A stretch of DNA of 64,000 bases from Rhizobium glycinendophyticum (GTDB lineage: Bacteria > Pseudomonadota > Alphaproteobacteria > Rhizobiales > Rhizobiaceae), in contig NZ_VFYP01000004.1 of NCBI RefSeq assembly GCF_006443685.1, forward strand, positions 62,001 to 126,000. Reading direction: 5' to 3'. This document shows, one piece after another, positions 11,217-31,223 of this stretch. The notes under the pieces are model-generated. The model ran no database searches and had not been told where the DNA came from. It saw only the letters and a program-made list of their open reading frames with translations. The stretch's first letter is position 1, and each line of letters starts with the position of its first letter. The position numbers were made by a program, and so were the translations under genes.

Positions 11217-11234
11217 CATTCGGAGGAAATGCAC

Positions 11235-17172: not shown

Positions 17173-17799
17173 TCAGAGACCTTCGATGAAGGCGAGGATG
17201 TCTGCTTCCGAGACGACATCGGCATATTTGGCATTCATGTCGAACAGATTGGCCTCATGCGGGGCCGAATGCCGATCCCCGCAGGCGTCGCGCACGACAG
17301 TGGTGATGAAGCCATACGACATGGCGTCAACGCAGGTGGCGCGCACGCAGCCGCTCGTCGTCAAGCCGGTCAGGATGACGTTATCGACCCCCATGCAGGT
17401 GAGCATCGAGGCGAGCGAGGTGCCGAAAAAAGCGCTCGGATATTGCTTGGTGATGACGAATTCATCCGGGAAGGGCTCAAGCCCCGCAGGCCAGGCGCCA
17501 AGCGGATTGCCTGCGGTGAAACAGGCAAGCGGCTTTGCCTTCTGGAAGAAGCGGCCACCGTCAAGACCAGAGGGGTGGAGCACGACGCCGGTCAGGATCA
17601 CGGGCAGACCTTTTTCCCGGGCGGCTGCTCGAATGCGCAATGCACTGGCAAGCGCTGCATCGACACCGGCATAAAGCGGGCTTGTCGGCTCGAAATAGGC
17701 CTCGACAAAATCCACCAGCACCAGAGCCGGCTTTTTACCGAAGCCGATCCGGTTGTCATAGGCCTTGGCGTAATTGGCGGCGAGATCGGCATCGGTCAT
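17173..17799 (-). CDS. Isochorismatase-family amidohydrolase (N-carbamoylsarcosine amidase-like)
   Basis: This cysteine hydrolase has 208 residues. The catalytic triad of the family is visible as Asp30 (LVLVDFVEAYF), Lys118 (VITKQYPSAFFGT) and Cys151 (TTSGCVRATCVDAM). The N-terminal NRIGFGKKPAL pattern is closer to N-carbamoylsarcosine amidase and maleamate amidase than to RutB. Known members cleave small amides or carbamoyl groups to acid plus ammonia. It is the last gene of the minus-strand catabolic operon, with its start overlapping the preceding stop (ATGA). Here it probably releases ammonia from a late ring-opened intermediate; the substrate is unknown. Confidence 0.88.
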   Translation of the reverse strand: MTDADLAANYAKAYDNRIGFGKKPALVLVDFVEAYFEPTSPLYAGVDAALASALRIRAAAREKGLPVILTGVVLHPSGLDGGRFFQKAKPLACFTAGNPLGAWPAGLEPFPDEFVITKQYPSAFFGTSLASMLTCMGVDNVILTGLTTSGCVRATCVDAMSYGFITTVVRDACGDRHSAPHEANLFDMNAKYADVVSEADILAFIEGL

Positions 17800-18668
17800 G
17801 GGTCACTCCCGATTTCGGAAAATTTCTGCTCGAAGGCCCAGACATCGTCAAAGCCAAGCAGGGTGTTGAAGTCCTTGAAGGGATAGAGATCGACGGCATC
17901 AGTGGTGATGCCGTTGTCCAGAAGGTCCCGATAGGCGTGGCGGACCGCATGGCCATGGGCGAGGAAGCCGAGCGCCGGGTAGATCGCAATGCCATAGCCG
18001 AGCGCCTGGAGTTCGCTGGCAGTCATCAGCGGGGTGCGCCCGCCGTTGACCATGTTGGCCAAAAGCGGGCGATCGATTTCAGCGGCAATCTGGCGGACCT
18101 CATCCGCGCTCTCCGGAGATTCGATGAATATGATATCAGCGCCGGCTGCGGCATAGGCCTTTGCCCGCCGGATCGCCTCGTCGAGACCCAGGCCTGTACG
18201 GGCATCGGTCCGGGCGATCACTAGAAAATCGTCGCTCTTCCGGCTATCGACGGCGACCTCGATCTTCTTGACCATGTCCGTCATCGGCACCACGCGACGG
18301 TTGGGTGTATGCCCGCATTTCTTCGGGAATTCCTGGTCTTCCAACTGGATGGCGCTCACGCCGACATACTCATAACCGCGCACCGTGTGGCGCACGTTGA
18401 GGAGACCGCCATAACCGGTATCGGCATCGGCGATCACGGGCGTCTTGGTCAGCTTGACGATCTGGGCGATGCGCTCGATCATGTCGCGATAAGTGGCAAT
18501 ACCGGCATCGGGGATGCCGAGATACGAGGCTACCGTTCCATAGCCGGTGACATAAAGCGCCTTGAAGCCCATATTGTCGGCAATAAGGGCTGAGATCATG
18601 TCATAGACGCCGGGCGCAAGGATGAAATCTCCGGCGGCGAGTGCTTGTTTCAAGGCTGGATCCGGCAT
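17796..18668 (-). CDS. Isocitrate lyase/PEP mutase superfamily enzyme
   Basis: This 290-residue TIM-barrel enzyme of the ICL/PEPM superfamily has the metal-binding aspartates in ADADTGYGG (about 80-88) and the family catalytic loop KKCGH (116-120, Cys118), which points to a lyase rather than a mutase. Relatives include 2-methylisocitrate lyase, oxaloacetate decarboxylase and 2,3-dimethylmalate lyase of nicotinate catabolism. Its start and the upstream amidase stop share one base (TAATG). In this operon it likely cleaves a C-C bond in the dicarboxylate left after nitrogen removal. The exact reaction cannot be read from sequence. Confidence 0.87.
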   Translation of the reverse strand: MPDPALKQALAAGDFILAPGVYDMISALIADNMGFKALYVTGYGTVASYLGIPDAGIATYRDMIERIAQIVKLTKTPVIADADTGYGGLLNVRHTVRGYEYVGVSAIQLEDQEFPKKCGHTPNRRVVPMTDMVKKIEVAVDSRKSDDFLVIARTDARTGLGLDEAIRRAKAYAAAGADIIFIESPESADEVRQIAAEIDRPLLANMVNGGRTPLMTASELQALGYGIAIYPALGFLAHGHAVRHAYRDLLDNGITTDAVDLYPFKDFNTLLGFDDVWAFEQKFSEIGSDP

Positions 18669-19981
18669 TAGGCTTCAGGCTTTCCATGAGATTTCAAAAT
18701 AGGTGCGATCCGTGCGGCGTGGGCGAGCAGATGGCTGTCGGCAAAACGCTGCGCGATCAGGGTGACGCCGATCGGCAGGCTGTCCCGCTCCAGAGCGACG
18801 GGAACATTGATGCAGGGCACCCCGAGCAAGGTCCAGGAGGCGTTGAAGAGAGGGTCGCCTGGCCGGCGACCGACCGGCGCAAAACCCGGGGCACTCGGCG
18901 CGACCACAGCATCGAAATCGGCGGCAATCTCATCGAAGGCAATGCGCGAAAGCGCCATGGCATCATAGGCGCGCGCAAGATCGGCAAGGCTTGAACCGTC
19001 ACGGTTCTCTACGCGGTGGTGGAAATCATCGTGAAGCTCGCCTCCGTGACGAGCAGCCAGATTGCGAAACGCGGCCTGGCCCTCGCGGTGCAGGATCACG
19101 CGGTGCTGGGCGTCGAGTGCCTTGGAATCCTCCGGCAGTTCCAGCCGGGTTACAAGATGGCCGGCAGAGGAAAGGCGTTCGGCGGCAAGGCTCAAGGCTT
19201 TCAGGCTTTCTGGCGCCAGCTTGTCGCGATAGGGACCGCTGGTGATGGCTATCCGTAGCTGCCCGGTTGCCGTTGCCTCCGGCTCAAGCGGTTCGTTGAG
19301 GCCAAGCACGCCGGCCATCAACGCCAGATCCGCAACCGAGCGGCCATACCAGCCGACGGTATCGAAGCTCAGCGCATAGATCTTTACGCCCTCCCGGCTG
19401 ACGCGGCCAAAGCTCGGTTTCATCGCATAGACGCCGCAGAACGAGCCGGGACGGATGGTCGAGCCGCCGGTCTGGGTGGCAAGGGCGAGCGGCACGTGGA
19501 AGTCGGCAACGGCTGCAGCCGAGCCGGCGGAGGAGCCACCGGACGTGCGGGTCAGGTCATGGGGATTGCCGGTTGCCGCATCGCGACCGGCTGCAGCAAA
19601 TTCCGTTGTGTCCGTCTTGCCGAGCACAATCGCGCCTTCTGCACGCAGGAAATCGACGACCGCAGCATCTGCTGCGGGGCGGAAACCTTGGTAAAGTGGC
19701 GAATTGTGCGTAGTCGGCAGATCGGCAGTGTCGAAGACATCCTTCACCCCAATTGGCAGGCCGTGAAGGCGTCGACGTTTGTCGAGAGGAACAGCGTCCA
19801 ATCGCGCCGCTTCGGCAAGCGCATTCGAATTTAGCGCCAACCAGGCTTTGACGTCTCCGTCTCGCTCTGCAATGCGGGCAAGACAGGCAGAGACGAGATC
19901 CCGGGAGGACAGCGCTCCTTCCCGCATGGCAGCAAGTGCCTCGGTCGCGCTCAGCCGCTGAATTTGGACAGCATTCATCAT
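18668..19981 (-). CDS. Amidase signature family hydrolase (second of the operon)
   Basis: This amidase has 437 residues and a complete Ser-cisSer-Lys triad: Lys80 (GLPIGVKDVFDT), cis-Ser150 (TSGGSSAGSAAA) and nucleophile Ser174 (QTGGSTIRPGS). The start is a tandem ATGATG that overlaps the stop of the preceding amidase by one base (TGATG); I give the first ATG. The overall length is close to AtzE/GatA-like amidases. It is cytoplasmic, with no signal peptide. In this operon it would hydrolyse an amide or ureide product made downstream of the RutA-type monooxygenase. Substrate specificity cannot be deduced. Confidence 0.9.
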   Translation of the reverse strand: MMNAVQIQRLSATEALAAMREGALSSRDLVSACLARIAERDGDVKAWLALNSNALAEAARLDAVPLDKRRRLHGLPIGVKDVFDTADLPTTHNSPLYQGFRPAADAAVVDFLRAEGAIVLGKTDTTEFAAAGRDAATGNPHDLTRTSGGSSAGSAAAVADFHVPLALATQTGGSTIRPGSFCGVYAMKPSFGRVSREGVKIYALSFDTVGWYGRSVADLALMAGVLGLNEPLEPEATATGQLRIAITSGPYRDKLAPESLKALSLAAERLSSAGHLVTRLELPEDSKALDAQHRVILHREGQAAFRNLAARHGGELHDDFHHRVENRDGSSLADLARAYDAMALSRIAFDEIAADFDAVVAPSAPGFAPVGRRPGDPLFNASWTLLGVPCINVPVALERDSLPIGVTLIAQRFADSHLLAHAARIAPILKSHGKPEA

Positions 19982-21543
19982 CACATCTGCCCCGCAGGCG
20001 TTGCATGATGAAAGCCGGTCACGGCTTGAAAGGCTGCCCCGAGGCTCAAGCAAAGCGCATCATCACCCGGCCGGCCGACCACTTGGATTCCGGTCGGCAA
20101 TCCGGTGCGACCAAGGCCGGACGGCAACATCAAGGCTGGCAGTCCCGTGACATCGAAGATCATCGTGTTACGGGAAATGACGGACTGAAACGCATGCGCC
20201 GTGTCGTTGACAACGACGGTGAGATCTTCGAGCCGGCCGGCCTCACCACCAAGTCCCGCTGTCACTATCAGGTCTATGCCCTGCATGGCTCTGACAAAAG
20301 CAGCCCGCGCCTCCGCCCGAAGCTGAAGCGCCCGCCCGTAGTCCACGGCCGAAAACTGAAGACCATTGTTCAACCGGTGCAACATGCCCCTGTCGAAGAG
20401 CTCGGCGCGGTCGAGCCGCGTGCCATGCAGTGTCGCCAGTTCACTTTGCAGGATGACCCAGCCCGCCTCATGCCAAGCTTCGATATCGAGCGCCGGGAAG
20501 GGCACAAGCATACAGCCGAGACCTTCCAGTCGGGCAAGGGCAGACTGCCAATTCGCAAGCACCGCATTGTCAACGTGGTCGGTGAACCAGACCTCGGGCA
20601 CCCCAATGCGCACCCCTCTCACAGACGCGTTGGACAGCACAGCCCGGCAGTCGTTCAGAAGTCCTGTATTCGGAAGGGCCGTCATAAAGGGGAGAACACG
20701 GGCAAGATCCCGCGCCGAGCGCGCCATCGGCCCGACGTGATCGAGCGTCCATGAGAGTGGCGCAACGCCTTCCCGGGACACGAGCTCTCGGGTGGGTTTG
20801 AAACCCGTCGTGCCGCACCAGCAGGACGGCACCCGTATCGAGCCGCCGGTGTCGGTGCCAATTGCGAGCGGCATCAGGCGCGCGGCCAAGGCAGCGCCCG
20901 ATCCCGTGGACGAGCCGCCGGTCCAGCGCGCGGCATTCCAGGGATTGGTGACGACGCCGAAGCGCGGATTGTGTGGCGAACCGGCAGCGAATTCGGTCGT
21001 CGCGGTCATGGCAAAGGGAATGGCGCCAGCTGCCCTGAGGCGTGCCACGGCTGCGGCATCGGCCGGCGCGATACGGTTGCCGGTGAACAAAGAGCCCGAG
21101 GTGACGACGGCCCCCTCGACGTCGATGATGTCCTTGACGCCAAAAGGGATGCCTTCAAGTGGCCTCGGATTGCCGGCCTTCCAGCGCGCATCGCTCTCGG
21201 CTGCTGCCGCTTTCGCGCCGGGCACGAGCCGCAACACGGCCTCACGGCCCGTCCTCGTTGCCGAGATCGCAGTGATCAGGCTTGCCAAAGCAGCAGACGG
21301 GCTGAGTGCGCCTTGGGAAAAAGCGCCCAGAAGCGTTTCGACATCGGCAGCGGCAACCGATCCCGGCAGGGAAGCCGGGACCAATTGGTAAGGTGACACA
21401 GAACCAATTGTTTCACTTAGCGCCGAGCCGCCTGAAGCCGGCCAATCGGGCGAGCTTGGATCGACAATCGAGAGCGGGTCAAGGTCAGCGGTCAGACCGG
21501 TGTCCTCAGCACGTGCCAGAGGGGCATTCGGCACCGGCGTCAC
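19981..21543 (-). CDS. Amidase signature family hydrolase (first of the operon)
   Basis: This amidase has 520 residues and a complete triad: Lys137 (IPFGVKDIIDVEG), cis-Ser211 (WTGGSSTGSG) and nucleophile Ser235 (GTDTGGSIRVPS). It carries an N-terminal extension of about 60 residues, rich in Pro, Ser and Ala, before the amidase fold. The start is a GTG at 21543, one base after the monooxygenase stop, with GAGG just upstream, so it may depend on translational coupling. It is paralogous to, but clearly different from, the next gene. Two amidases in tandem behind a ring-opening monooxygenase suggest successive amide cleavages. Confidence 0.9.
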   Translation of the reverse strand: MTPVPNAPLARAEDTGLTADLDPLSIVDPSSPDWPASGGSALSETIGSVSPYQLVPASLPGSVAAADVETLLGAFSQGALSPSAALASLITAISATRTGREAVLRLVPGAKAAAAESDARWKAGNPRPLEGIPFGVKDIIDVEGAVVTSGSLFTGNRIAPADAAAVARLRAAGAIPFAMTATTEFAAGSPHNPRFGVVTNPWNAARWTGGSSTGSGAALAARLMPLAIGTDTGGSIRVPSCWCGTTGFKPTRELVSREGVAPLSWTLDHVGPMARSARDLARVLPFMTALPNTGLLNDCRAVLSNASVRGVRIGVPEVWFTDHVDNAVLANWQSALARLEGLGCMLVPFPALDIEAWHEAGWVILQSELATLHGTRLDRAELFDRGMLHRLNNGLQFSAVDYGRALQLRAEARAAFVRAMQGIDLIVTAGLGGEAGRLEDLTVVVNDTAHAFQSVISRNTMIFDVTGLPALMLPSGLGRTGLPTGIQVVGRPGDDALCLSLGAAFQAVTGFHHATPAGQM

Positions 21544-21544
21544 C

Positions 21545-22627
<1,083 letters not shown>

Positions 22628-22662
22628 CTTGGTTCCCCTTTTTATGAGCCAAACGCATGCAC

Positions 22663-22677
22663 TATGTACGAACTAAT
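22663..22677. promoter_or_regulatory. Predicted GntR operator upstream of the rutA-like operon
   Basis: TATGTACGAACTAAT lies 36 bases upstream of the monooxygenase start. It matches the site at 23807-23821 (reverse strand TATGTACGTACTAAT) in 14 of 15 positions and shares its core with 25270-25284. GntR/HutC regulators bind such short palindromes, and the regulator gene lies 230 bases upstream. The rest of this 281-base gap (22628-22908) is AT-rich with no other clear element. Confidence 0.65.
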
Positions 22678-22908
22678 GCAAAAAACTCTCCGACTGTCCA
22701 GCCGAAAATGATGCATGTTTAGGCGTGCATATTTTATGTGCATTCGGCGAAATTACGCGCAAGAACAACTGCCGCCGAATGGATCAGGCGACGTCGGAGT
22801 GGGCAAAACCACGGGCCAGAAGCTCAAGAAAGAAAAACGAGCACGGTTGCCACCACCCCATCGCTCAGAGCGCGATAAGGCCGGCATTCTTTAGAAATCA
22901 GCGAGGGG

Positions 22909-23673
22909 TCAGCCCTCGGCGCGCAACGTGGTGGTGAAGGTGAAACGCTCTGCCGGCAGGACTTGGAAGGCGTATTCCAAAAGGCGACGGCCGGAGCCGT
23001 AATAGCGGCGGGTCACGACGAGCGCCAAATCTCCCGGCTTGACGTCGAGCTTGGAGGCGATCACCTCGTCCAGCACAAGAGGCTTTATATCCTGCTGAAT
23101 TTCCTGGATTTTCTCGCCGGTAAACTGCTCGATATAATGGAAGATCGCGCTGCGTGCGACGGTGATATCCTTAACGGCAGCCGACAATTTCGAATCGACA
23201 TAGACCTCATTCCAGGAAAATGGCCTGCTGCGGTTGCCCGGGTAACGAATGCCGGCCATATGGAAGAATTTTCGACCTGGTCGGCAGCCGAGCTCGACGG
23301 CAAGCTTGCCTTGGGCGGAAATCTCCTCCTTGGTGTCAATGACGAATTCGGTCTCAGCAGCGATTTCGAAAAGCTCGGAGCGTGAATGGGCAATGAAGCG
23401 CTTGCGCTCCGGGTCAAATCCCGCCTCGACGCGGGTCCCCACACCCTTTCGGGCTGAGAGACGTCCCTTGTTGCGCAAAGTCCCGATTGCCTGGCGCACC
23501 GTCTGACGGCTGACGCCGAGAGCCGCCGCAATTTCGTTTTCCGTCGGCAGAAGCGAACCCACCGGATAGTCGCCATTGCTGATGCGACCCTCCAAATGGT
23601 GGGCCACCTGAAGATAAAGCGGAGCCGTATCAAGTTCAGGTTTCCAGTTGGTGTGCTTCTGATCCACGTCCAT
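22909..23673 (-). CDS. GntR family (HutC/UTRA) transcriptional regulator
   Basis: This protein has 254 residues. The winged-helix domain shows the GntR pattern (PLYLQVAHHLEGRISNGDYP, then LPTENEIAAALGVSRQTVRQ and LRNKGRLSARKGVGTRV). The remaining 170 residues match the chorismate-lyase-like UTRA ligand domain, ending in YYGSGRRLLEYAFQVLPAERF. I chose the ATG at 23673, since the frame open further upstream runs through a predicted operator and lacks conserved residues. It sits between the two operons of the catabolic locus, with matching palindromes upstream of itself and both operons. It is likely the local repressor, released by the substrate or an intermediate. Confidence 0.88.
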   Translation of the reverse strand: MDVDQKHTNWKPELDTAPLYLQVAHHLEGRISNGDYPVGSLLPTENEIAAALGVSRQTVRQAIGTLRNKGRLSARKGVGTRVEAGFDPERKRFIAHSRSELFEIAAETEFVIDTKEEISAQGKLAVELGCRPGRKFFHMAGIRYPGNRSRPFSWNEVYVDSKLSAAVKDITVARSAIFHYIEQFTGEKIQEIQQDIKPLVLDEVIASKLDVKPGDLALVVTRRYYGSGRRLLEYAFQVLPAERFTFTTTLRAEG

Positions 23674-23806
23674 GGCAGTCCCCGCCGGCACAACCGCCGG
23701 ACCAATCCCAGTGCCTGTGTTCAATCCTCTTTCGTCATAAAACGCAAACGGAATCCCGCCGTCTGAACGCGGCTCGTGCGGTGACTTGCGGATAACCCGT
23801 AAATCA

Positions 23807-23821
23807 ATTAGTACGTACATA
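23807..23821. promoter_or_regulatory. Predicted GntR operator in the gntR/MFS divergent region
   Basis: The reverse strand reads TATGTACGTACTAAT. The site lies between the divergently transcribed GntR gene and the MFS transporter gene, 34 bases before the transporter start. One site could control both genes, which would make the regulator autoregulated. Confidence 0.65.
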
Positions 23822-23854
23822 TCCTAGCAACCAATCCTCGGATCATTGGGCCAT

Positions 23855-25075
23855 ATGTCGGATCTCATTGCCGGAGAGGCGCCGCCCGCGCGCCGCGTCT
23901 CGTCCCTCCTCCAGACGCTTGCAGCCGCAACGCTTATCCAGATCGTGGCGACCGCGAGCGTGCTGGCGCTCACGGCAATCGCTCCGACCGTGGCTGCCGA
24001 TCTCGATATCGGCGCCTACTGGATCGGCTACCAGATCAGCCTGATTTATGCGTCGGGCATGTTTTCGTCGGCTGTCGCTGGCACGCTGGTGCAGCGTTTC
24101 GGGCCGGTGCGCATCGAGCAGGTCGCGCTCATCTGCTTCGTGCTCGGCTTTGCCGGCATTGCAAGCGCCAGTATCCCGCTGATCGTTGTCGCCTCGCTCT
24201 TCATCGGCATTGGCTACGGGCTGAACAACCCGGCCTCGTCGGAGATGCTGAGCCGCGTGACGCCACAGTCCAAACGCAACATCGTTTTTTCCTTGAAGCA
24301 ATCAGGAGTGCCACTCGGCGGCATCCTGGCAAGCTTCGCCTTTCCCTTCCTGTCGCGTTATGTCGACTGGCACGTGGCACTGCTGATCGGTGCGCTTGCG
24401 CCACTCTCGACCATGGGGCTGCTGGCGATAACCCATGCCGCAGACCCGATCGTTCCGGCCTCGTCCCGCTCGCTTTTGAAGGGGCTCATCGAAGAACAAT
24501 CGACGATCTGGCGCCATCCGCGCCTGCGTGCGCTATGCGGCCTGGGATTTGCCTATTCGGCGATGCAGTTGTCGATCTCCGCCTTTGCCGTCGTCACCCT
24601 CGTGCATGATGCGGGATGGTCACTGCTGTCGGCCGGCTCGGTCGCTGCGGCAATGCAGCTGGCGGGCGCGCTGGGTCGCGTCTTCTGGGGCGTCGTCGCC
24701 GACCGGATCGGCGGCGGCTTTCTGACGCTCGCCCTGCTCGGCCTCCTCGGCGGCACGGGCTATGCGCTTCTCTTTTTTTTGCAAGACCTGCCCGTCGTCC
24801 TGCAAGTCACCCTCTTCGTTTTGACCGGTGGCGTCACGATCGGCTGGAATGGGGTACTCCTGGCAGAAGTGGCGCACAACGCCCCCCATGGCCGCGTCGG
24901 CGCCATTACCGGTGGCGTTCTGGTCTACACCTTCATCGGTGTCATCGTCGGCCCCTCGTCCTTTGCCGCCGTCTATGCGCTGACCGGCCACTACGGCGCG
25001 AGCTTCATGATCTTCTCGCTGTTCGGCCTTGCCGGCATGATCGTCGCCTGGCGGGCCCATCGCAACCGCACCTGA
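23855..25075 (+). CDS. MFS transporter
   Basis: This 406-residue integral membrane protein of the major facilitator superfamily has about twelve hydrophobic segments. The loop between helices 2 and 3 carries the degenerate family pattern GTLVQRFGPVRIEQ, and the C-terminal half has the matching GRVFWGVVADRIGGG. I chose the ATG at 23855; a TTG nine bases earlier is possible. It is divergent from the GntR gene and shares a predicted operator with it. It likely takes up the substrate of the catabolic locus or exports an intermediate, alongside the ABC transporter encoded next. A second transporter class in one locus is notable. Confidence 0.88.
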   Translation: MSDLIAGEAPPARRVSSLLQTLAAATLIQIVATASVLALTAIAPTVAADLDIGAYWIGYQISLIYASGMFSSAVAGTLVQRFGPVRIEQVALICFVLGFAGIASASIPLIVVASLFIGIGYGLNNPASSEMLSRVTPQSKRNIVFSLKQSGVPLGGILASFAFPFLSRYVDWHVALLIGALAPLSTMGLLAITHAADPIVPASSRSLLKGLIEEQSTIWRHPRLRALCGLGFAYSAMQLSISAFAVVTLVHDAGWSLLSAGSVAAAMQLAGALGRVFWGVVADRIGGGFLTLALLGLLGGTGYALLFFLQDLPVVLQVTLFVLTGGVTIGWNGVLLAEVAHNAPHGRVGAITGGVLVYTFIGVIVGPSSFAAVYALTGHYGASFMIFSLFGLAGMIVAWRAHRNRT

Positions 25076-25253
25076 TCCATATGTACTGACAAAGCAAGCA
25101 CGCGACACGGCCCGAAGCCATGCTGCGCGCGCTCAGTCTTGTCTGTGGATTTGGTCCTTCGAGGCAGTTTGAACACGATTCAAGCGCCAGAATGGTGGGC
25201 TTTTTGGCAATCGCCGCTTTTATGTGCAGCGCAAAAAAATAGGCAAAAGCCAG

Positions 25254-25283
25254 TTGACGTCTCTCTGACTATGTACGTACATT
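25254..25283 (+). promoter_or_regulatory. Predicted sigma-70-like promoter of the ABC/amidase/rutF operon
   Basis: TTGACG at 25254-25259 is followed after 18 bases by TACATT at 25278-25283. The predicted GntR palindrome overlaps the -10 element, as expected for a repressor site. The promoter lies 74 bases upstream of the binding-protein start. The remainder of the 281-base gap behind the MFS gene has only a single ATGTAC half-site at 25081. Confidence 0.5.
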
Positions 25284-25284
25284 A
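25270..25284. promoter_or_regulatory. Predicted GntR operator upstream of the ABC transporter operon
   Basis: The site contains the perfect 12-base palindrome ATGTACGTACAT (25271-25282). It shares the TATGTACGTAC core with the reverse-strand reading of the site at 23807-23821 and overlaps the predicted -10 element. Confidence 0.68.
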
Positions 25285-25356
25285 TCTGTCAGCAGCCCTC
25301 TCAAGCTGCAGCAGAACTCACCGGAAAATCCGGGATTACAGAGGGGAATGTTGATC

Positions 25357-26457
25357 ATGCGCCTGCTTATCGCCAGTTCGTTCTTGGCCGCCTCCACTGC
25401 TGCGGTCATCGCCACACCCGCCGCTGCAGATCCGATGGCCGACGCCAAGGCCATTATCGAGCAGCACCGTGCGATGCCGGTCTTCGAGGCACCCGGTGAG
25501 CCTTTCGACGCCAAGGCCTGCATGGCAGACAAGAAGGTCTTGTCGATCCCGATCTCGATGACCATTCCTTTCAATGTCGAGCTGCAAAAGGCTATGGCTT
25601 CGGCAGCCGAAGAGGTCGGCTTCACCTATACGACCTGGGACAACCAGCTCAAAATCGACCAGTGGGTACAGGGGATTTCGCAGGCGATCAGCCAGAAATA
25701 CGACGTCATCGATCTCGCGGGCGGCCTTAATCCGGAAGTGCTCGGGCCGCAGCTCGGCGAGGCCCGTGCCGCCGGCCTGAAGATCTCCACGACCCATTTC
25801 TATGACGTCACGCAGCCGGCCGTCGACAGCGTCGACTATTCCGGCAAGGTCGACTTCACCGGTGCTGGTAAGCTGCTGGCCGCCTGGGCCTATGTGCAGA
25901 CCGAGGGTAAGCCGAACGTTCTGATCATCGGCTCGTCCGACGTGCTTCCGTCGATCCCCTTCGTCCAATCGATCCAGGACGAGTTGAAGACGCTCTGCCC
26001 GGATTGCGTTCAGAAACATCTCGACGTTCCGGTTTCCGAATGGGCGACCAAGATCCAGTCCGGCACCCAGTCTGCGCTGCTGGCCGACCCGTCGATCAAC
26101 TACATCCTGCCGATCTATGATTCCATGTCGCAGTTCGTCGTACCGGCGCTGCGCATCACCGGATCGGAAGGGTCCGTGAAGCTCGCAAGCTTCAACGGCA
26201 CACCTTTCGTGCTCGACATGGTGCGCGAAGGACAGGTTGAGATGGATATCGGCGAAAGCCTCGGCTGGGCCGGTTATGCGGCGATCGACAACATCATGCG
26301 CATGCTCTGCGGCAAGCCGGAAGTGGCGAAGCTCAACGTACCCCTCCTGGTCTTCGACAAGGACAATATCCAGACCGCAGGCGTGCCCGCCAACTTCAAC
26401 GACGGCTATGGCGACGCCCATCTCGATGGCTTCCGCAAGCTGTGGAAGCTGAAGTAA
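25357..26457 (+). CDS. Periplasmic substrate-binding protein, ribose-type ABC transporter
   Basis: This periplasmic type-1 binding protein has 366 residues. The N-terminus is a Sec signal (RLLIASSFLAASTAAVIATP) with AAA/DP at the likely cleavage site. The body shows the ribose/galactose-binding pattern, including FNVELQKAMASAAEEVGF and the late IGESLGWAGYAAIDNIM. I chose the ATG at 25357, which is ten bases from the GAGGGG ribosome site; the ATG at 25348 is one base away from it. It is the first gene of the plus-strand ABC, amidase and rutF operon under a predicted GntR operator. The ligand is unknown and probably is the substrate of the catabolic locus. Confidence 0.9.
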   Translation: MRLLIASSFLAASTAAVIATPAAADPMADAKAIIEQHRAMPVFEAPGEPFDAKACMADKKVLSIPISMTIPFNVELQKAMASAAEEVGFTYTTWDNQLKIDQWVQGISQAISQKYDVIDLAGGLNPEVLGPQLGEARAAGLKISTTHFYDVTQPAVDSVDYSGKVDFTGAGKLLAAWAYVQTEGKPNVLIIGSSDVLPSIPFVQSIQDELKTLCPDCVQKHLDVPVSEWATKIQSGTQSALLADPSINYILPIYDSMSQFVVPALRITGSEGSVKLASFNGTPFVLDMVREGQVEMDIGESLGWAGYAAIDNIMRMLCGKPEVAKLNVPLLVFDKDNIQTAGVPANFNDGYGDAHLDGFRKLWKLK

Positions 26458-26487
26458 GCTCCGACTGACAAAAGCAGGAGCCGTCTC

Positions 26488-28035
26488 ATGACCGAGAATG
26501 CCGTGCTCACCATGAACAACATCCGCATGCGGTTCGGCAGCTATTACGCGCTCAAGGGTGTTTCGCTGTCGATACGCCGCGGCGAGGTGTTCGGGCTACT
26601 CGGCCAGAACGGCTCCGGCAAGTCGACGATGATCAAGGTGCTCGCGGGCTTCCACCAGCCGGAGGAGGGCTCGGAAGTGATCCTGTGGGGGCAGACCATG
26701 CCCCTGCCGCTCAATCCCATGGAGATCAAGAAGCGCGGCGTCACCTTCGTGCATCAGCATCTGGGTCTCGTTTCCTCATTGACCGTGATGGAAAACATGC
26801 GCGTCACCGCGCTCGGCCAGAAGACACCTCTGTTCGTCAACTGGAAGAAAGAAGCGGCTGCAATCTCCAGGCTGTTTGCGGAATTCGACCTCACCATCGA
26901 TCCCTTTGAGACAGTTGCGAACCTGCCGCCGGTCGAACGGGCCTTCGTCGCCATTATCCGCGCCTTTGAAGAACTGCGTGCCTCAGATGCCGGCTATGGC
27001 GGTGAGGGTATTCTCGTCCTCGACGAACCCACCCCCTTCCTGCCGGCGGACGATGTGCAGCGGCTGTTTGCCCTCATCCGCTCGATCGTCAAGACCGGCG
27101 CCTCCGTGGTCATCGTCACGCATGACATTGACGAGGTGCGCGACATCACCGACCGGGTGGCGATCTTACGCGATGGAGAACTGGTCGACGTGCTCGATAC
27201 CAAAGTCGCCGAGCGGCAGTCGATCCTCGACACGATCGTCGGCTCGCGGATCGATGCGTTCGAGAAGAAGCGTATGGCAAATGCCGGCGTACCGGCGGCT
27301 GTCAGCGTGCGCGGTTTTTCCGATGGCACGAACACGCCTTTCAACTTCGAGATCCGGGCGGGCGAAACGCTTGGTGTCACCGGTCTGATCGGCTCGGGCT
27401 TTGCAGCCCTCCCCTATCTCCTCTACGGCGCACGCAGTGGCACCGGCGAGATTACCCTTGACGGCCGAACGATCTCGCTTTCCACGATCACGCCGCTTGC
27501 CGCGCAAAAACTCGGCATCGCCTTCCTGCCCGGCGACCGTCTGGGGGCGGCGGGCATCGGTACGCTGTCTGTCACCGACAATATCACCCTTCCCGTGCTC
27601 CATGGCCTGTTGAAGCCCTACGGCCTCGATCGTCCCGGCATGACGCGCGAGGCGGCCCGGCTGGCACAGATCCATGATGTCAGACCGCAGGATCCGAACC
27701 TGCCGCTCGGCTCTCTTTCGGGCGGCAACCAGCAAAAGGTGCTGCTCGCCAAGTGGCTCCAGATCAAGCCCAAGCTGTTGATGCTGGACGAACCGACGCA
27801 GGGCGTCGATTTCGGCGCCCGCCAGCAGATCTTCAAGGCGCTCGACCGGGCAGCAGCGGAGGGCACGGCGATCCTCTGTGCTTCGACCGACAACGAGCAG
27901 CTTGAGCAGATCTGCGACCGGATCATCGTGTTTTCGCGCGGCCGGCCCGTCATCGAGCTCAAGGGTGCCGAGATCTCCAGAAAATCCATCACCGAAGCCT
28001 GTTTCCACAGCCATGACGCGGAGGCTGCAGAATGA
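26488..28035 (+). CDS. Ribose-type ABC transporter ATPase (tandem NBD)
   Basis: This RbsA-like protein of 515 residues has two fused nucleotide-binding domains. Domain 1 has a good Walker A (GQNGSGKST, about 39-47) and Walker B (ILVLDEPT), but where LSGGQ is expected it reads NLPPVERAFVAIIRAF. Domain 2 has an intact signature (LSGGNQQKVLLAKWL) and Walker B (LLMLDEPTQGVDF) but a degenerate Walker A (GLIGSGFAALP). So probably only one composite ATP site is catalytic. A CAGGAG site precedes the start, and the stop overlaps the permease gene in ATGA. It energises uptake for the catabolic locus. Confidence 0.9.
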   Translation: MTENAVLTMNNIRMRFGSYYALKGVSLSIRRGEVFGLLGQNGSGKSTMIKVLAGFHQPEEGSEVILWGQTMPLPLNPMEIKKRGVTFVHQHLGLVSSLTVMENMRVTALGQKTPLFVNWKKEAAAISRLFAEFDLTIDPFETVANLPPVERAFVAIIRAFEELRASDAGYGGEGILVLDEPTPFLPADDVQRLFALIRSIVKTGASVVIVTHDIDEVRDITDRVAILRDGELVDVLDTKVAERQSILDTIVGSRIDAFEKKRMANAGVPAAVSVRGFSDGTNTPFNFEIRAGETLGVTGLIGSGFAALPYLLYGARSGTGEITLDGRTISLSTITPLAAQKLGIAFLPGDRLGAAGIGTLSVTDNITLPVLHGLLKPYGLDRPGMTREAARLAQIHDVRPQDPNLPLGSLSGGNQQKVLLAKWLQIKPKLLMLDEPTQGVDFGARQQIFKALDRAAAEGTAILCASTDNEQLEQICDRIIVFSRGRPVIELKGAEISRKSITEACFHSHDAEAAE

Positions 28036-29042
28036 CGACGCTCGATATGCCAACGACCAAACCGATCACCCGGCCGAAGAGCCGTTTCACCCTGAAGACG
28101 GAGGCCGAACGCTTTGCGCTGGTGGGTGCCTGGCTGCTTCTGATCATGATCTTCGGCACGCTGATGCCCGACAGTTTCTTGAGCTGGCGCAGCTTCTCGA
28201 CGCTGTTTGGCTCGCAGGCCGTGCTTGTGGTGCTGACGCTTGCCATCATCATTCCGCTGACGTCAGGCGATTTCGATCTCTCCGGCGCTTCAACGCTGAC
28301 GATGAGCTCAATGCTGATTGCGGTCCTCAACGTCAAGCTCGGCTGGCCGATCGTGCCGGTCATGCTGATTGCCCTTGCAAGCGGCTTGATCATCGGGGCA
28401 GTCAACGCCTTTTTTGTCCTCTACTTCCGCATCCACTCCTTGATCGTGACACTCGGCGTCGGCACCTTCGTCAACGGCCTGATCCTCTGGGTCAGCAATT
28501 CGCAGACCATCTCCGGTGTTTCGATGGGTCTTGTGCAATGGGTGATTATCAATCGCTTCCTCGGCATTCCACTGGCCTTCTTCTATGCACTGATCCTTGC
28601 GGGGGTGATCTGGTATGCGCTGGAATTCACCATCCCAGGTCGCAAGCTGCTCTTCGTTGGCCGGGGCCGCGAAGTCTCGCGCCTGAACGGCATCGATGTG
28701 GACCGCGTGCGGGCCACCTCCTTCGTTCTGTCGGGTCTGATTTCGGCCTTTGCCGGCATGCTCTATGCGGGCATGACCGGCTCGGCCGATCCGCTATCGG
28801 GGCTCAACCTGCTGCTGCCGGCCTTTGCCGCTGCCTTTCTCGGCGCCACGACCATTTCGCCCGGTCGCTTTAACGCCTTTGGTGCTGTCATCAGCGTCTA
28901 CTTTCTCGTGACCGGCATCACCGGGCTCACCATGCTCGGCGCTGATGCCTATGTACAGAACCTGTTTTATGGCGGCGCCCTGGTCATTGCCGTGTCGCTC
29001 AGCCAGCTCGTTCGCAACCGTCAGCCACAGGATTTCAGCTGA
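28032..29042 (+). CDS. Ribose-type ABC transporter permease
   Basis: This RbsC-like inner-membrane permease has 336 residues and about nine hydrophobic segments. The conserved loop for the family is recognisable as FVGRGREVSRLNGIDVDRV, followed by FVLSGLISAFAGMLYAG. The start overlaps the ATPase stop in ATGA, and the stop shares one base with the start of the following small gene (TGATG). A single permease gene implies a homodimer. It completes the binding protein, ATPase and permease set of the locus. Confidence 0.91.
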   Translation: MTTLDMPTTKPITRPKSRFTLKTEAERFALVGAWLLLIMIFGTLMPDSFLSWRSFSTLFGSQAVLVVLTLAIIIPLTSGDFDLSGASTLTMSSMLIAVLNVKLGWPIVPVMLIALASGLIIGAVNAFFVLYFRIHSLIVTLGVGTFVNGLILWVSNSQTISGVSMGLVQWVIINRFLGIPLAFFYALILAGVIWYALEFTIPGRKLLFVGRGREVSRLNGIDVDRVRATSFVLSGLISAFAGMLYAGMTGSADPLSGLNLLLPAFAAAFLGATTISPGRFNAFGAVISVYFLVTGITGLTMLGADAYVQNLFYGGALVIAVSLSQLVRNRQPQDFS

Positions 29043-29245
29043 TGGATACGCGCCAGATCATGGAAGCTCTGGCCGAAGCCTATTGGAAGCGGCCGGCCGT
29101 CGAGGCGGAACTGGTTGCGATGATCGGCGAGCTGACGCGTGACGCAGAGAAGATCGCCGGGCGCGTGCCCGCCGGCCGCTCCGATCTCTTCGGCATCGAA
29201 CCATCGAGCTTCGACGCGGTGCTGCTGTCGGAGGTCACCCGATGA
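29042..29245 (+). CDS. Small AtzG/GatC-like putative amidase partner
   Basis: This is a 67-residue acidic protein with no signal or membrane segment. It looks alpha-helical at the N-terminus (MEALAEAYWKRPAVEAELVA) and ends in an extended segment, GRSDLFGIEPSSFDAVLLSE. It is coupled by one-base and four-base overlaps to the permease before it and the amidase behind it. In cyanuric acid catabolism the small AtzG protein, a GatC relative of similar size encoded next to the amidase AtzE, is required for a stable AtzE complex. The size, position and helical character match, so I infer a structural partner of the downstream amidase. Residue-level homology is not proven. Confidence 0.65.
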   Translation: MDTRQIMEALAEAYWKRPAVEAELVAMIGELTRDAEKIAGRVPAGRSDLFGIEPSSFDAVLLSEVTR

Positions 29246-30663
29246 GCGACACCGATCCGAAAAACCTGCGCGAGGCCGCCGGGTTGATCCGATCCGGCAA
29301 GATTTCGTCGGTCGAACTGACCATGGCGGCACTTGACCGGGCCAAGGCCAGCCGAGAGCGGCTGAATGCCTTCATCGAAATCGAGGAAGAGACAGCCCTT
29401 GCCGCCGCTCAGGCTTCGGATGCAGCGCTTGCAAGTGGAAAGGCGCTTGGGCCGCTCCATGGCGTGCCGCTTGCCCACAAGGACATGTATGACCGCGCCG
29501 GTTTCGTCACCGGCTGCGGCTCAAAGATCCGCGCAACCCATATGGCCACCTCCACTTCGACGGTGATGCAGAGGCTTGAAGCGGCCGGTGCGATCTCGAT
29601 CGGGCGGCTCAATATGAGCGAATTCGCCATGGGACCGACCGGCCACAACTTCCACCATGGCCGTGCCATCAATCCTGTTGACCCCGAGCGTATCACCGGC
29701 GGTTCGTCCTCCGGCTCGGGTGCGGCGGTCGGCGGCGGTGTGGTGCTCGCCGCGCTTGGCTCCGATACAGGCGGATCGATCCGTCTGCCGGCTGCCTGTT
29801 GCGGCGTGGTCGGCATCAAGCCAACGCAGGGGCGGGTCAGCCGACATGGCGCCATGCCGCTGTCGTTTTCGCAGGATTGCATCGGTCCGCTGGCCCGCTC
29901 GGTCGAGGATGCCTATCTGCTGCTGCAGTTGATCTCGGGGCCCGACGGACAGGATACGACCTGTGCTGCCATCGATCCGCCGGGTGCGCTCACCAGCGAC
30001 CTTTCCTCCCTGAGGATCGGGATAGCCGGCGGAATTTTCGCCGACAATCTCGATGCCGAGACGGCCAAGGGGGTGGAGATTGCAGCAAAGGTTTTGGCTG
30101 ACAGCGCCCAAAGCGTTACGGCCGCAACGATCCCTGATTTCTCCGCCATTGCCGAACTTGCCAATGCTGTTGCCATGGCCGAAGCCGGAAGTTTTCATTT
30201 CGACTGGATGCGGGACCGACCAGAAGACTATGGCCCGCAGGTCCGCATGCGGCTCTCGCAGTCGCTCGCCATTCCCGCGCCAATCTATCTGCGGGCATTG
30301 CAGGCCCGCTCGATTATGCTCGAGCAATTCCTGGACGCAGCCTTTGCCAAGGCCGATGTGCTGATTGCCCCGACCATGCCATTCGTCGTGCCGCTCTCCG
30401 CAGATGTCGATGTCGGATCGAGCCCCTCGATGAATGCTGTCACCAGCGCCATGACGTCGCTGACGCGGCCCTTCAGCTATCTGGGGCTGCCGGTGGTGAC
30501 CGTTCCCGTCGGCGTCTCGGCGCAAGGACTGCCCGTGGCGCTGCAGATCATCGCCCGGCCCTGGCGCGAAGATCTGGCAGCCAGCATCGCCCTTCATCTC
30601 GAAAGCAGGCTGGCAGTGCCGGCCTTTCAATCCATGTCCACCTTGAACAGGCCAGCGGCATGA
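29242..30663 (+). CDS. Amidase signature family hydrolase (AtzE/GatA-like)
   Basis: This 473-residue amidase has a complete triad: Lys80 ([11 protein letters not shown]), cis-Ser155 ([10 protein letters not shown]) and nucleophile Ser179 ([12 protein letters not shown]). The C-terminal part has the family pattern [15 protein letters not shown]. It overlaps the small AtzG-like gene upstream (ATGA) and is followed by the flavin reductase. It is the third amidase of the locus and the only one on the plus strand. Its length and small partner fit the AtzE-AtzG type, which hydrolyses carboxybiuret; a ureide or carbamoyl amide substrate is plausible but not shown. Confidence 0.9.
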
Positions 30664-30698
30664 CCGCAGCGCCCCGAGAGCCCGAAAGGATCTTTTCG

Positions 30699-31223
30699 AT
30701 GAACACCGTTCCGACCCTGACCGCACCTGTCGAACCCTTGAGCGACGTCAGTCAGAAGGCTTTTCGCGACGCCATGGCGAAGATGGCGGCCGCCGTCAAC
30801 ATCATCACGACCGATGGACCCGCCGGCAAAGCCGGCTTTGCCGCAACCGCCGTCTGCAGCGTGACCGACAGCCCGGCCTCGCTGCTGATCTGTCTGAACC
30901 GCAGCGCCTCCGTATTCGAGACGGTGATCGCCAATGGGGTTGTCAGCGTCAACGTGCTGTCAGCTGAACACCAGGTTCTGTCGTCACTGTTCGGCGGCAA
31001 GACGCCGGTCGAGGAGCGCTTTGCGGCTGCCGACTGGCATCTTGGGGTAACCGGGGCGCCGATGTTGTCGGATGCGATGGTGTCCTTCGACTGCACCATC
31101 ACAGAGACCCAGGACATCGGCACCCACCGCATCCTGTTCTGTTCGGTGAAGGCAATCGAAGAACGCGACGCCTCCGGTGCGCTGCTCTACTATAAGCGTA
31201 GCTACCACCATCTGCCCGCCTGA
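30699..31223 (+). CDS. rutF: RutF-type flavin reductase
   Basis: This NADH:FMN reductase of 174 residues supplies reduced flavin to the RutA-type monooxygenase. The match to RutF is strong: [57 protein letters not shown] and [10 protein letters not shown] chose the ATG at 30699, which has AGGA eight bases upstream; the ATG at 30660 overlapping the amidase stop gives a 13-residue extension without homology. It ends the plus-strand operon, about 8 kb from rutA on the opposite strand. The pairing of RutA and RutF under one regulator supports a shared pathway. Confidence 0.9.

What the first reader, a model, noticed from the sequence alone, without database searches (positions are those of the whole stretch)
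17173..31223. A RutA/RutF-based catabolic island that is not the classical rut operon
Seen: a RutA-type monooxygenase, a RutF-type reductase, three amidases with complete triads, an AtzG-like small protein, an isochorismatase-family amidohydrolase, an ICL/PEPM-family lyase, an MFS transporter, a ribose-type ABC transporter and a GntR regulator in divergent operons. Known: RutA opens uracil with FMN and O2, and RutF reduces FMN. No rutB, rutC, rutD, rutE or rutG equivalents are visible. Inferred: a ring-opening pathway for a different N-heterocycle, ureide or cyclic amide. Nitrogen would be stripped by successive amidases, and the remaining dicarboxylate cleaved by the ICL-type lyase. I do not know this gene set as a described pathway.
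Basis: partly seen in the sequence, partly recalled or inferred. Interest (0 to 1): 0.78.

Follow-up and report, generated by a model that had tools for sequence, protein, structure and literature searches.

The report
Second RutA ring-opening pathway in rhizobia
A soil bacterium that already carries the standard uracil-degrading gene set has a second, separately controlled set of genes built around a sister enzyme, which probably opens a related nitrogen-containing ring that has not yet been identified.

Summary
At 17173-31223 lie a genuine RutA-family monooxygenase, a RutF-like reductase, three amidase-signature enzymes with complete triads, an isochorismatase-type amidohydrolase, an ICL/PEPM lyase, MFS and ribose-type ABC transporters, and a GntR regulator.

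New facts: (1) the same genome has a separate canonical rut operon (rutA, B, C, D, F), so this is a second system; (2) the island RutA falls outside the canonical clade (AU p 0.0019) but keeps the oxygen-pocket residues, T105 being Ser; (3) RutA and the amidase AmdA sit together in 39 of 40 related loci (35 of 36 found by AmdA alone), in Rhizobiaceae, other Alphaproteobacteria and Actinomycetota; (4) a 12-bp operator-like site precedes rutA, the MFS gene and the ABC operon, and its pattern occurs nowhere else in the 4.84-Mb genome; (5) five relatives carry RutE, one a Rid protein.

Best reading: a dedicated Rut-type pathway opening a uracil-like ring other than plain uracil, stripping nitrogen with amidohydrolases and ending in a small acid. 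The ICL step is accessory (12 of 29 Rhizobiaceae-type loci). The substrate is unknown. Ten literature searches showed no description. New variant of a known kind.

The parts
17173..17799 (-). Isoch: isochorismatase-superfamily amidohydrolase of the N-carbamoylsarcosine amidohydrolase / NicF (maleamidase) type; proposed to release NH3 from the ring-opened ureido or half-amide acid
   Evidence: PF00857 113 bits; closest solved structures 26st (N-carbamoylsarcosine amidohydrolase, 144.5 bits) and 3ot4/3uao (listed as putative isochorismatase; that it is NicF is recalled), RutB only weak; RutB HMM 41.6 vs cut-off 378; D30/K118/C151/R176
17796..18668 (-). ICL: ICL/PEPM-superfamily lyase with KKCGH; proposed 2-substituted-malate (or oxaloacetate) cleavage; accessory
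   Evidence: prpB HMM 277.1 vs cut-off 354.4; closest PDB petal death protein 1zlp; relatives near LeuCD hydro-lyase genes in 3 of 5 plasmid contexts opened; in 12 of 40 relatives
18668..19981 (-). AmdB: amidase-signature enzyme closest to malonamidase E2; ORF opens at 20053 (TTG), likely ATG near 19981 overlapping the AmdA stop
   Evidence: PDB 208 bits to malonamidase E2, next family 148; K62/S131/S155/R158 equivalents aligned
19981..21543 (-). AmdA: amidase-signature enzyme, near-constant partner of this RutA
   Evidence: PF01425 289 bits; closest PDB 6c62 biuret hydrolase, 161.6 bits; with RutA in 39 of 40 relatives
21545..22627 (-). RutA paralogue: FMNH2/O2-dependent amide monooxygenase
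   Evidence: TIGR03612 626.8 bits; 544 bits to E. coli RutA structures; outside canonical clade; L65, N134, V136, W139, F224 kept, T105 is Ser
22664..22675 (-). operator-like site TAGTTCGTACAT, 48 bp before rutA
22909..23820 (-). GntR/HutC-type regulator with UTRA domain; true start probably near 23673 because the ORF start overlaps the operator-like site
   Evidence: PF00392 68.7 bits, PF07702 56.6 bits; alternative starts
23809..23820 (+). operator-like site TAGTACGTACAT, 37 bp before the MFS ORF, in the divergent GntR/MFS gap
23846..25075 (+). MFS transporter
   Evidence: PF07690 124 bits
25271..25282 (+). operator-like perfect palindrome ATGTACGTACAT, 77 bp before the binding-protein gene
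25348..26457 (+). ABC transporter substrate-binding protein (Peripla_BP_4)
   Evidence: PF13407 86.4 bits
26488..28035 (+). ABC transporter double ATPase (ribose/galactofuranose type)
   Evidence: PF00005, two stretches; NCBIfam YtfR 320.9 vs cut-off 850
28032..29042 (+). ABC transporter permease
   Evidence: PF02653 88.8 bits
29042..29245 (+). 67-aa helical protein in the AtzG/GatC position before AmdC
   Evidence: 26 relatives have it, by tblastn; no Pfam, PDB or fold match; three predicted helices
29242..30663 (+). AmdC: AtzE-like amidase-signature enzyme
   Evidence: TIGR02715 371.1 vs cut-off 425.75; best PDB hit 6c62 biuret hydrolase, 272 bits (that this is AtzE is recalled)
30660..31223 (+). 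RutF-like NAD(P)H:FMN reductase
   Evidence: TIGR03615 245.8 vs cut-off 254.75; PF01613 119 bits

Best explanation
The island is one GntR-controlled catabolic regulon, a second Rut-type pathway beside the genome's canonical rut operon. The ABC and MFS transporters import a nitrogen heterocycle. RutF supplies FMNH2, and the RutA paralogue uses it with O2 to open a conjugated ring amide, as E. coli RutA does with uracil, giving an open-chain ureido or amido acid. AmdA, Isoch, AmdC with its small partner, and AmdB then hydrolyse the ureide and half-amide bonds and release ammonia. The remaining short oxo- or dicarboxylic acid enters central metabolism: through RutE where the locus has it, or through the ICL-type lyase in some Rhizobiaceae. 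The substrate is most likely a uracil-like pyrimidine or cyclic ureide other than plain uracil. Shown by computation: family membership, conserved catalytic residues, a clade separate from canonical RutA, conserved gene partnership, a shared operator-like site, co-residence with canonical rut. Inferred: every reaction, the order of steps, the regulator's binding and the substrate.
For: Separate canonical operon in the same genome: RutA 695.6 bits, RutB 441.6 over cut-off, RutC, RutD and RutF beside it. Of 199 family genomes (own included), 12 carry a RutA of the canonical score band, 10 one of the island band, 5 both. Window RutA inside the canonical clade rejected, AU p 0.00188. Oxygen-pocket residues kept, T105 to Ser in 29 of 29 Rhizobiaceae island rows; T105S kept about 80% activity in E. 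coli RutA (PMC7662398 passage). RutA with AmdA in 39 of 40 relatives, ABC genes in 35 of 40; AmdA beside 9 of 10 island-band RutAs. RutA distances track the binding protein (r 0.925), permease (0.953) and AmdA (0.867). Operator-like pattern only at the three island sites genome-wide. RutE in 5 and Rid in 1 of 40 relatives.
Against: No substrate is identified. Rut-type partners (RutE, Rid) in some relatives leave room for plain uracil or thymine. Hydrolase content varies between loci: AmdB 26, AmdC 29, Isoch 29, ICL 12 of 40, so the downstream route may differ or the labels may mislead. The window genome itself gave no RutE match (no positive control). Five of the ten genomes with an island-band RutA lack a RutA of the canonical band, so in those the island could serve for uracil. 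Ser at 105 is also found in 12 of 19 other RutA-family rows, so it does not mark the island. RutF is just under its family cut-off. AmdA-linked RutAs are not one clade (at least 3 changes). The operator-like site is mostly absent from the non-Rhizobiaceae loci, L148 and L154 excepted, and two near-matches in the window alone are not significant (10 of 100 shuffles).
Confidence: 0.58

Rival explanations
1. The island is simply an alternative uracil/thymine pathway: RutA opens uracil or thymine, and the amidases and NicF-like enzyme stand in for RutB-RutD, used under other conditions or for thymine.
For: RutA is 65% identical to E. coli RutA with the same catalytic pocket; RutE in 5 and Rid in 1 of 40 relatives; 5 of the 10 genomes with an island-band RutA have no canonical-band RutA.
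Against: The other 5 of the 10, the window genome among them, also have a canonical-band RutA, more than chance (Fisher p 3.6e-5 for the 9 AmdA-linked ones; 3.3e-4 without the own genome; kinship not corrected); RutA is a separate clade; three amidases plus an amidohydrolase exceed what uracil needs; the operator pattern occurs nowhere outside the island.
Confidence: 0.2
2. The substrate is not a pyrimidine of the uracil kind but an imide, a barbiturate-like ring or a pyridone; the amidases act as acylurea and half-amide hydrolases (AtzE-like AmdC, malonamidase-like AmdB, maleamidase-like Isoch) and the ICL lyase cleaves the resulting 2-substituted malate.
For: AmdC closest to biuret hydrolase 6c62, AmdB to malonamidase E2 with its R158 equivalent, Isoch close to N-carbamoylsarcosine amidohydrolase with a 54% relative in a nicotinate-type cluster and another relative directly after a leuD gene; ICL relatives near LeuCD in 3 of 5 contexts opened; hydantoinase-like gene in 3 of 40 relatives.
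Against: RutE in 5 relatives suggests a malonic-semialdehyde-like product; ICL is absent from 28 of 40 loci; E. coli RutA needs a pyrimidine with an intact amide (PMC7662398 passage).
Confidence: 0.18
3. The genes are unrelated neighbours with no common pathway.
For: The two halves are divergent, and ICL, AmdB and Isoch come and go.
Against: Conserved order across 29 Rhizobiaceae-type loci and parts of it in 11 others; shared operator-like site; congruent distances.
Confidence: 0.02

Closest known systems
Rut pathway (rutABCDEFG) of Escherichia coli
   Same: RutA-family amide monooxygenase with a RutF-like reductase; an isochorismatase-superfamily hydrolase; RutE (5 of 40) and a Rid protein (1 of 40) in related islands
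   Different: No RutB, RutC, RutD, RutE or RutG in the window island; three amidase-signature enzymes, ICL-type lyase, ABC and MFS import, GntR instead of RutR; RutA in a different clade; co-resident with a canonical rut operon
Cyanuric acid / biuret degradation (AtzE with AtzG)
   Same: AmdC is AtzE-like (371 bits, best PDB hit the biuret hydrolase 6c62) with a small protein encoded just before it
   Different: Under the AtzE cut-off; small protein has no detectable AtzG similarity; no cyanuric acid hydrolase gene recognised in the island
Nicotinate pathway maleamidase NicF and N-carbamoylsarcosine amidohydrolase
   Same: Isoch shares the TTSGCVRA and GDR motifs and the lysine stretch seen in the aligned structures; a 54% identical relative sits in a Pantoea nicotinate-type cluster
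   Different: No NicX, NicC, NicD or NicE in the island
Malonamidase E2
   Same: AmdB's closest solved relative, with the K62/S131/S155/R158 equivalents
   Different: Different gene context; activity untested
Methylisocitrate lyase / petal death protein (2-alkylmalate lyase type)
   Same: ICL has the KKCGH loop and near full-length similarity
   Different: Below the cut-off of each of the 8 NCBIfam models it matched; no methylcitrate-cycle genes in the island; missing in most relatives

Membership tests
RutA (TIGR03612) | score over curated cut-off 498.3 | tested here: met
   626.8 bits
RutA (TIGR03612) | oxygen-pocket residues L65, T105, N134, V136, F224 | tested here: met
   four identical; T105 is Ser in the window, in 29 of 29 Rhizobiaceae island rows, 7 of 8 distant ones and 12 of 19 other rows, Thr in 16 of 16 canonical rows; T105S retains about 80% activity (PMC7662398 passage)
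RutA (TIGR03612) | opens uracil/thymine | not testable with these tools
   needs assay
canonical rut operon | rutB, rutC, rutD, rutE, rutG beside rutA | tested here: not met
   none in the island; Isoch 41.6 bits vs RutB cut-off 377.95; the genome's rut operon is elsewhere
canonical rut operon | RutA inside the canonical RutA clade | tested here: not met
   AU p 0.00188
RutF (TIGR03615) | score over curated cut-off 254.75 | tested here: not met
   245.8 bits, its best hit
AtzE (TIGR02715) | score over curated cut-off 425.75 | tested here: not met
   AmdC 371.1, AmdA 221.2, AmdB 182.4
AtzG | sequence or fold similarity to a solved or Pfam AtzG/GatC-type family | tested here: inconclusive
   no Pfam or PDB sequence match; no useful fold match
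N-carbamoylsarcosine amidohydrolase / NicF type | closest relatives and catalytic D-K-C with GDR motif | tested here: met
   alignments; catalytic roles recalled
N-carbamoylsarcosine amidohydrolase / NicF type | activity on that substrate | not testable with these tools
   needs assay
malonamidase E2 type | K62, S131, S155 and R158 equivalents in AmdB | tested here: met
   alignment; the roles, R158 included, are recalled
methylisocitrate lyase (TIGR02317) | score over curated cut-off 354.4 | tested here: not met
   277.1 bits

The most novel reading that the evidence does not exclude
RutA is not a uracil-only enzyme family but a family of amide oxygenases with several substrate classes, and this island is the first outlined pathway of a second class: oxidative opening of a substituted pyrimidine or cyclic ureide, followed by acylurea and half-amide hydrolysis to a small dicarboxylic or oxo acid, spread as one regulon among rhizobia and, in shortened or altered form, among other Alphaproteobacteria and soil actinobacteria.
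Probability: 0.5. Interest if true: 0.68.

Novelty: new variant of a known kind. Interest (0 to 1): 0.55.

Why it matters
RutA is the model enzyme for flavin-N5-peroxide chemistry, and uracil and thymine are its known natural substrates. A conserved sister clade with its own transporters, hydrolases and regulator, in several genomes that also carry a canonical rut operon, is a concrete handle on a second substrate of this chemistry. It would fill a gap in how soil and plant-associated bacteria use heterocyclic nitrogen, and it is directly testable with one deletion mutant and two purified proteins.

Tried and rejected
Literature: the ten full-text searches gave, in the titles and start-of-abstract lines listed (at most 20 rows per search, often out of more papers), no paper on a RutA-amidase pathway. 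The library holds open-licence PMC papers only. Riboflavin/lumichrome catabolism (PMC12746152, outline with abstract and passages) was considered because it also uses several amidases; the terms 'Rut' and 'luciferase' do not occur in its main text, so I dropped it.

RutB family membership of Isoch: rejected (41.6 bits vs 378). Methylcitrate-cycle role for the lyase: rejected for lack of prpC/prpD in the island and the sub-cut-off score. Opines, trigonelline, pyridone amides, orotate and willardiine as substrates: thought of from memory, with no evidence for or against.

Caveats. Of the 40 relatives, 33 (L009-L041) are from the AmdA scan, which gave 78 loci; the other 45 (L042-L086; AmdA at most 46% identical over the best segment, or the fragment L049 at a contig end) were left out. 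Three more (L148, L154, L164) were also found by AmdA, so 35 of 36 AmdA-found loci have RutA; four (L159-L162) were found by RutA and taken from the nine with AmdA. L153 (40% AmdA) was left out. Five G-genome loci repeat named ones, judged by equal contig length, and were not counted twice. Isoch counts include L010 (35%), L016 and L036 (65-69%, opposite strand). Mantel correlations do not remove species relatedness, and AmdC there includes cross-hits between amidases. The AU-test group was set by operon context but run after the first tree was seen. The 9/12 site before rutA is reached by about 1 in 10 shuffled upstream regions (191 of 2000); its weight lies in its constancy (same 12-mer in 25 of 40 loci) and. 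The pattern was built from the three sites, so only its absence elsewhere is new. AmdA was rare in drawn samples, own genome included: 1 of 398 phylum, 2 of 385 class, 3 of 297 order genomes (only the best 3-5 candidates per genome were scored).
Full report
What is there. On the minus strand run GntR, RutA, AmdA, AmdB, ICL and Isoch; on the plus strand MFS, then a binding protein, double ATPase and permease, a 67-aa protein, AmdC and RutF. Several neighbours touch or overlap by a few bases (RutA-AmdA, AmdB-ICL, ICL-Isoch, permease-small protein-AmdC-RutF), as in operons. The flanks hold sugar genes: a protein with an alpha-L-arabinofuranosidase C-terminal domain at 11229-12743 and a GH2 protein at 35662-37905.

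It is a second system. The window's genome (G000, 4.84 Mb) carries another RutA at C1:1819411-1820475 with 695.6 bits, followed by RutB (441.6 bits, over cut-off), RutC (70% to E. coli), RutD (42%) and RutF (54%). The island RutA is 61% identical to that canonical one. In a sample of 199 genomes of the family, own included, 17 have a RutA at E <= 1e-140. Twelve fall in a 690-714 bit band, and all 12 have RutB and RutC beside them. Ten fall in a 616-633 bit band, and 9 of these have AmdA beside them; the tenth (G308) does not, and has a further RutA of 548.5 bits. Five genomes have both bands. The overlap is more than chance (Fisher p 3.6e-5 with the 9 AmdA-linked ones, 3.3e-4 without the own genome), though kinship was not corrected for. 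The genome also has two hydantoinase/dihydropyrimidinase genes over cut-off elsewhere, so a reductive pyrimidine route may exist too; I did not test that.

RutA. In a tree of 72 sequences the canonical clade (16 rows) has support 100/99 and the Rhizobiaceae island clade (29 rows) 100/99. Without eight long-branched rows (64 kept) the canonical clade has 100/100, and forcing the window RutA into it is rejected (AU p 0.00188). AmdA-linked RutAs are not a single clade: at least 3 changes of the label are needed. With the numbering of the structural papers (offset 19 from the MKIGVF start, which I inferred from the sequence), L65, N134, V136, W139 and F224 are unchanged in the window, while T105 is Thr in 16 of 16 canonical rows and Ser in 29 of 29 Rhizobiaceae island rows, 7 of 8 distant island rows and 12 of 19 other rows. 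In E. coli RutA, changes at T105, N134 and V136 abolished activity except T105S, which kept about 80% (PMC7662398, passages seen). T105 and N134 coordinate the oxygen (PMC10005588, passages seen). The chemistry should therefore be the same. Differences from canonical RutA at 135, 137, 142, 304-306 and 309 could shift the substrate (inference).

Conservation. From one scan with AmdA plus plasmid and genome hits I kept 40 relatives. RutA is present in 39 of 40 (35 of the 36 found by AmdA); the exception is a Solirubrobacterales contig (L032). The binding protein, ATPase and permease are in 35 of 40 each, RutF-like in 31, Isoch in 29, AmdC in 29, AmdB in 26, ICL in 12, RutE in 5, a hydantoinase-like gene and a CobW GTPase in 3, a nitrilase-like gene in 3, and a Rid protein in 1 (thresholds in bits set by me). 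Of the 29 Rhizobiaceae-type loci, RutA, GntR and MFS are in 29, and the ABC genes, AmdC and RutF in 28. Contig ends explain some misses of ICL and Isoch (L009, L015, L021). Counting the window, the aligned parts of RutA and AmdA lie within 300 bp of each other in 37 of 40 loci that have both; in three actinobacteria the gap is 1.3-2.0 kb. Pairwise distances of RutA track those of the binding protein (r 0.925), permease (0.953) and AmdA (0.867), with no shuffle of 2000 as high, and Isoch less well (0.627, one of 2000).

One regulon. A perfect palindrome ATGTACGTACAT lies 77 bp before the binding-protein gene, TAGTACGTACAT 37 bp before the MFS gene, and TAGTTCGTACAT 48 bp before rutA. Across relatives the first is perfect in 22 of 35 loci (0 of 1750 shuffled regions), the second scores 10 of 12 in 22 of 31 (13 of 1550 shuffles reach 10), and the third is the identical 12-mer in 25 of 40 (a match of at least 9 of 12 is reached in 191 of 2000 shuffles). 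Outside the Rhizobiaceae only L148 and L154 show good sites. The pattern WWGTWCGTACAT, built from the three, occurs at those three places only in the whole genome, with none for its reversed control. That ties both halves to one local regulator, presumably the HutC-type GntR. The GT-N4-AC architecture fits that subfamily from memory.

The hydrolases. AmdC's best solved relative is the biuret hydrolase 6c62 (272 bits; AtzE by recall), and it scores 371 against the AtzE cut-off of 426. AmdB is closest to malonamidase E2 (208 bits; the next family has 148) and aligns its K62, S131, S155 and R158. Isoch is closest to N-carbamoylsarcosine amidohydrolase and far from RutB. A 54% relative sits in a Pantoea cluster with 2,5-dihydroxypyridine dioxygenase and an Asp/Glu racemase, the slot of NicF as I recall it, and a 72% relative follows a leuD gene in Novosphingobium sp. 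ES2-1. The ICL protein is closest to petal death protein. Of five plasmid contexts of its relatives that I opened, three have LeuCD hydro-lyase genes close by (Skermanella and Roseomonas directly, Azospirillum in the same gene run beside a second ICL homologue) and two, Caballeronia and Bosea, do not. That suggests 2-substituted malates (inference). AmdA has no close solved relative (6c62, 161.6 bits).

Mechanism. Import; oxidative opening of a conjugated ring amide by RutA/RutF; release of ammonia by AmdA and Isoch, with AmdC acting on an acylurea-like and AmdB on a half-amide-like intermediate; then the acid goes to RutE (Palleronia L148, Pararhizobium L040, Rhizobium AAP43 L022, L154, L161), or, in 12 of 40 loci, possibly to the ICL lyase (two loci, L022 and L040, have both). 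RutE (NCBIfam 299 and 301 bits against a cut-off of 152 in L148 and L040) and the Rid protein (PF01042 100 bits; under the RutC cut-off) argue that the skeleton ends as a malonic-semialdehyde-like acid, hence a pyrimidine-like substrate. The ICL, NicF-like and malonamidase-like proteins argue for a dicarboxylate half-amide. Both can be met by a substituted pyrimidine or cyclic ureide, which is my choice, but no tool here can decide it.

Known or new. None of the ten literature searches showed a description of this gene set in what was listed. Parts are known; the combination, the separate RutA clade and the co-residence with canonical rut make it a new variant of a known kind.

Noticed in passing
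L115 (G000:C1:1811000-1823000): The genome's canonical rut operon (A, B, C, D, F; no E or G hit in the 12 kb) appears to sit inside a suf iron-sulphur gene cluster; the suf genes were recognised by eye from ORF starts only.
   Followed up: partly
L138-L140 (G095) and L102/L109/L112/L114 (G138): Two alphaproteobacterial genomes carry four RutA-family genes each (those of G138 under the family cut-off), with no RutB or RutC hit in the stretches I looked at: the RutA family has further branches.
   Followed up: partly
L042:604-11400: A Chloroflexi contig has three distant RutA-like genes (24-26% identity) followed by five amidase-signature genes in a row.
   Followed up: no
L171, L173, L016:11512-18762: A separate module of arylmalonate-decarboxylase/maleate-isomerase-family protein, an Isoch relative and an SDR (with FAD monooxygenase in L171 and L173, ICL in L171 and L016) recurs in Novosphingobium, Thioclava and Agrobacterium rosae; it looks like a substituted-maleamate pathway.
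   Followed up: partly
L175:9980-10618: A protein in a nicotinate-type cluster of Pantoea sp. At-9b is annotated as N-carbamoylsarcosine amidohydrolase; its context suggests maleamidase (NicF).
   Followed up: no
L143 (G308:C9:63000-82500): A Rhizobiaceae genome has two RutA paralogues (60% and 74% identical to the window's) 8.5 kb apart, with no AmdA found beside them.
   Followed up: partly
L177 and L178 (G000:C1:2795566-2796912 and 531584-532942): Two hydantoinase/dihydropyrimidinase genes over the TIGR02033 cut-off elsewhere in the same genome; a reductive pyrimidine route may also exist.
   Followed up: no
window 59065-60597: Aromatic amino acid lyase (histidine ammonia-lyase family, PF00221, 284.6 bits).
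   Followed up: no
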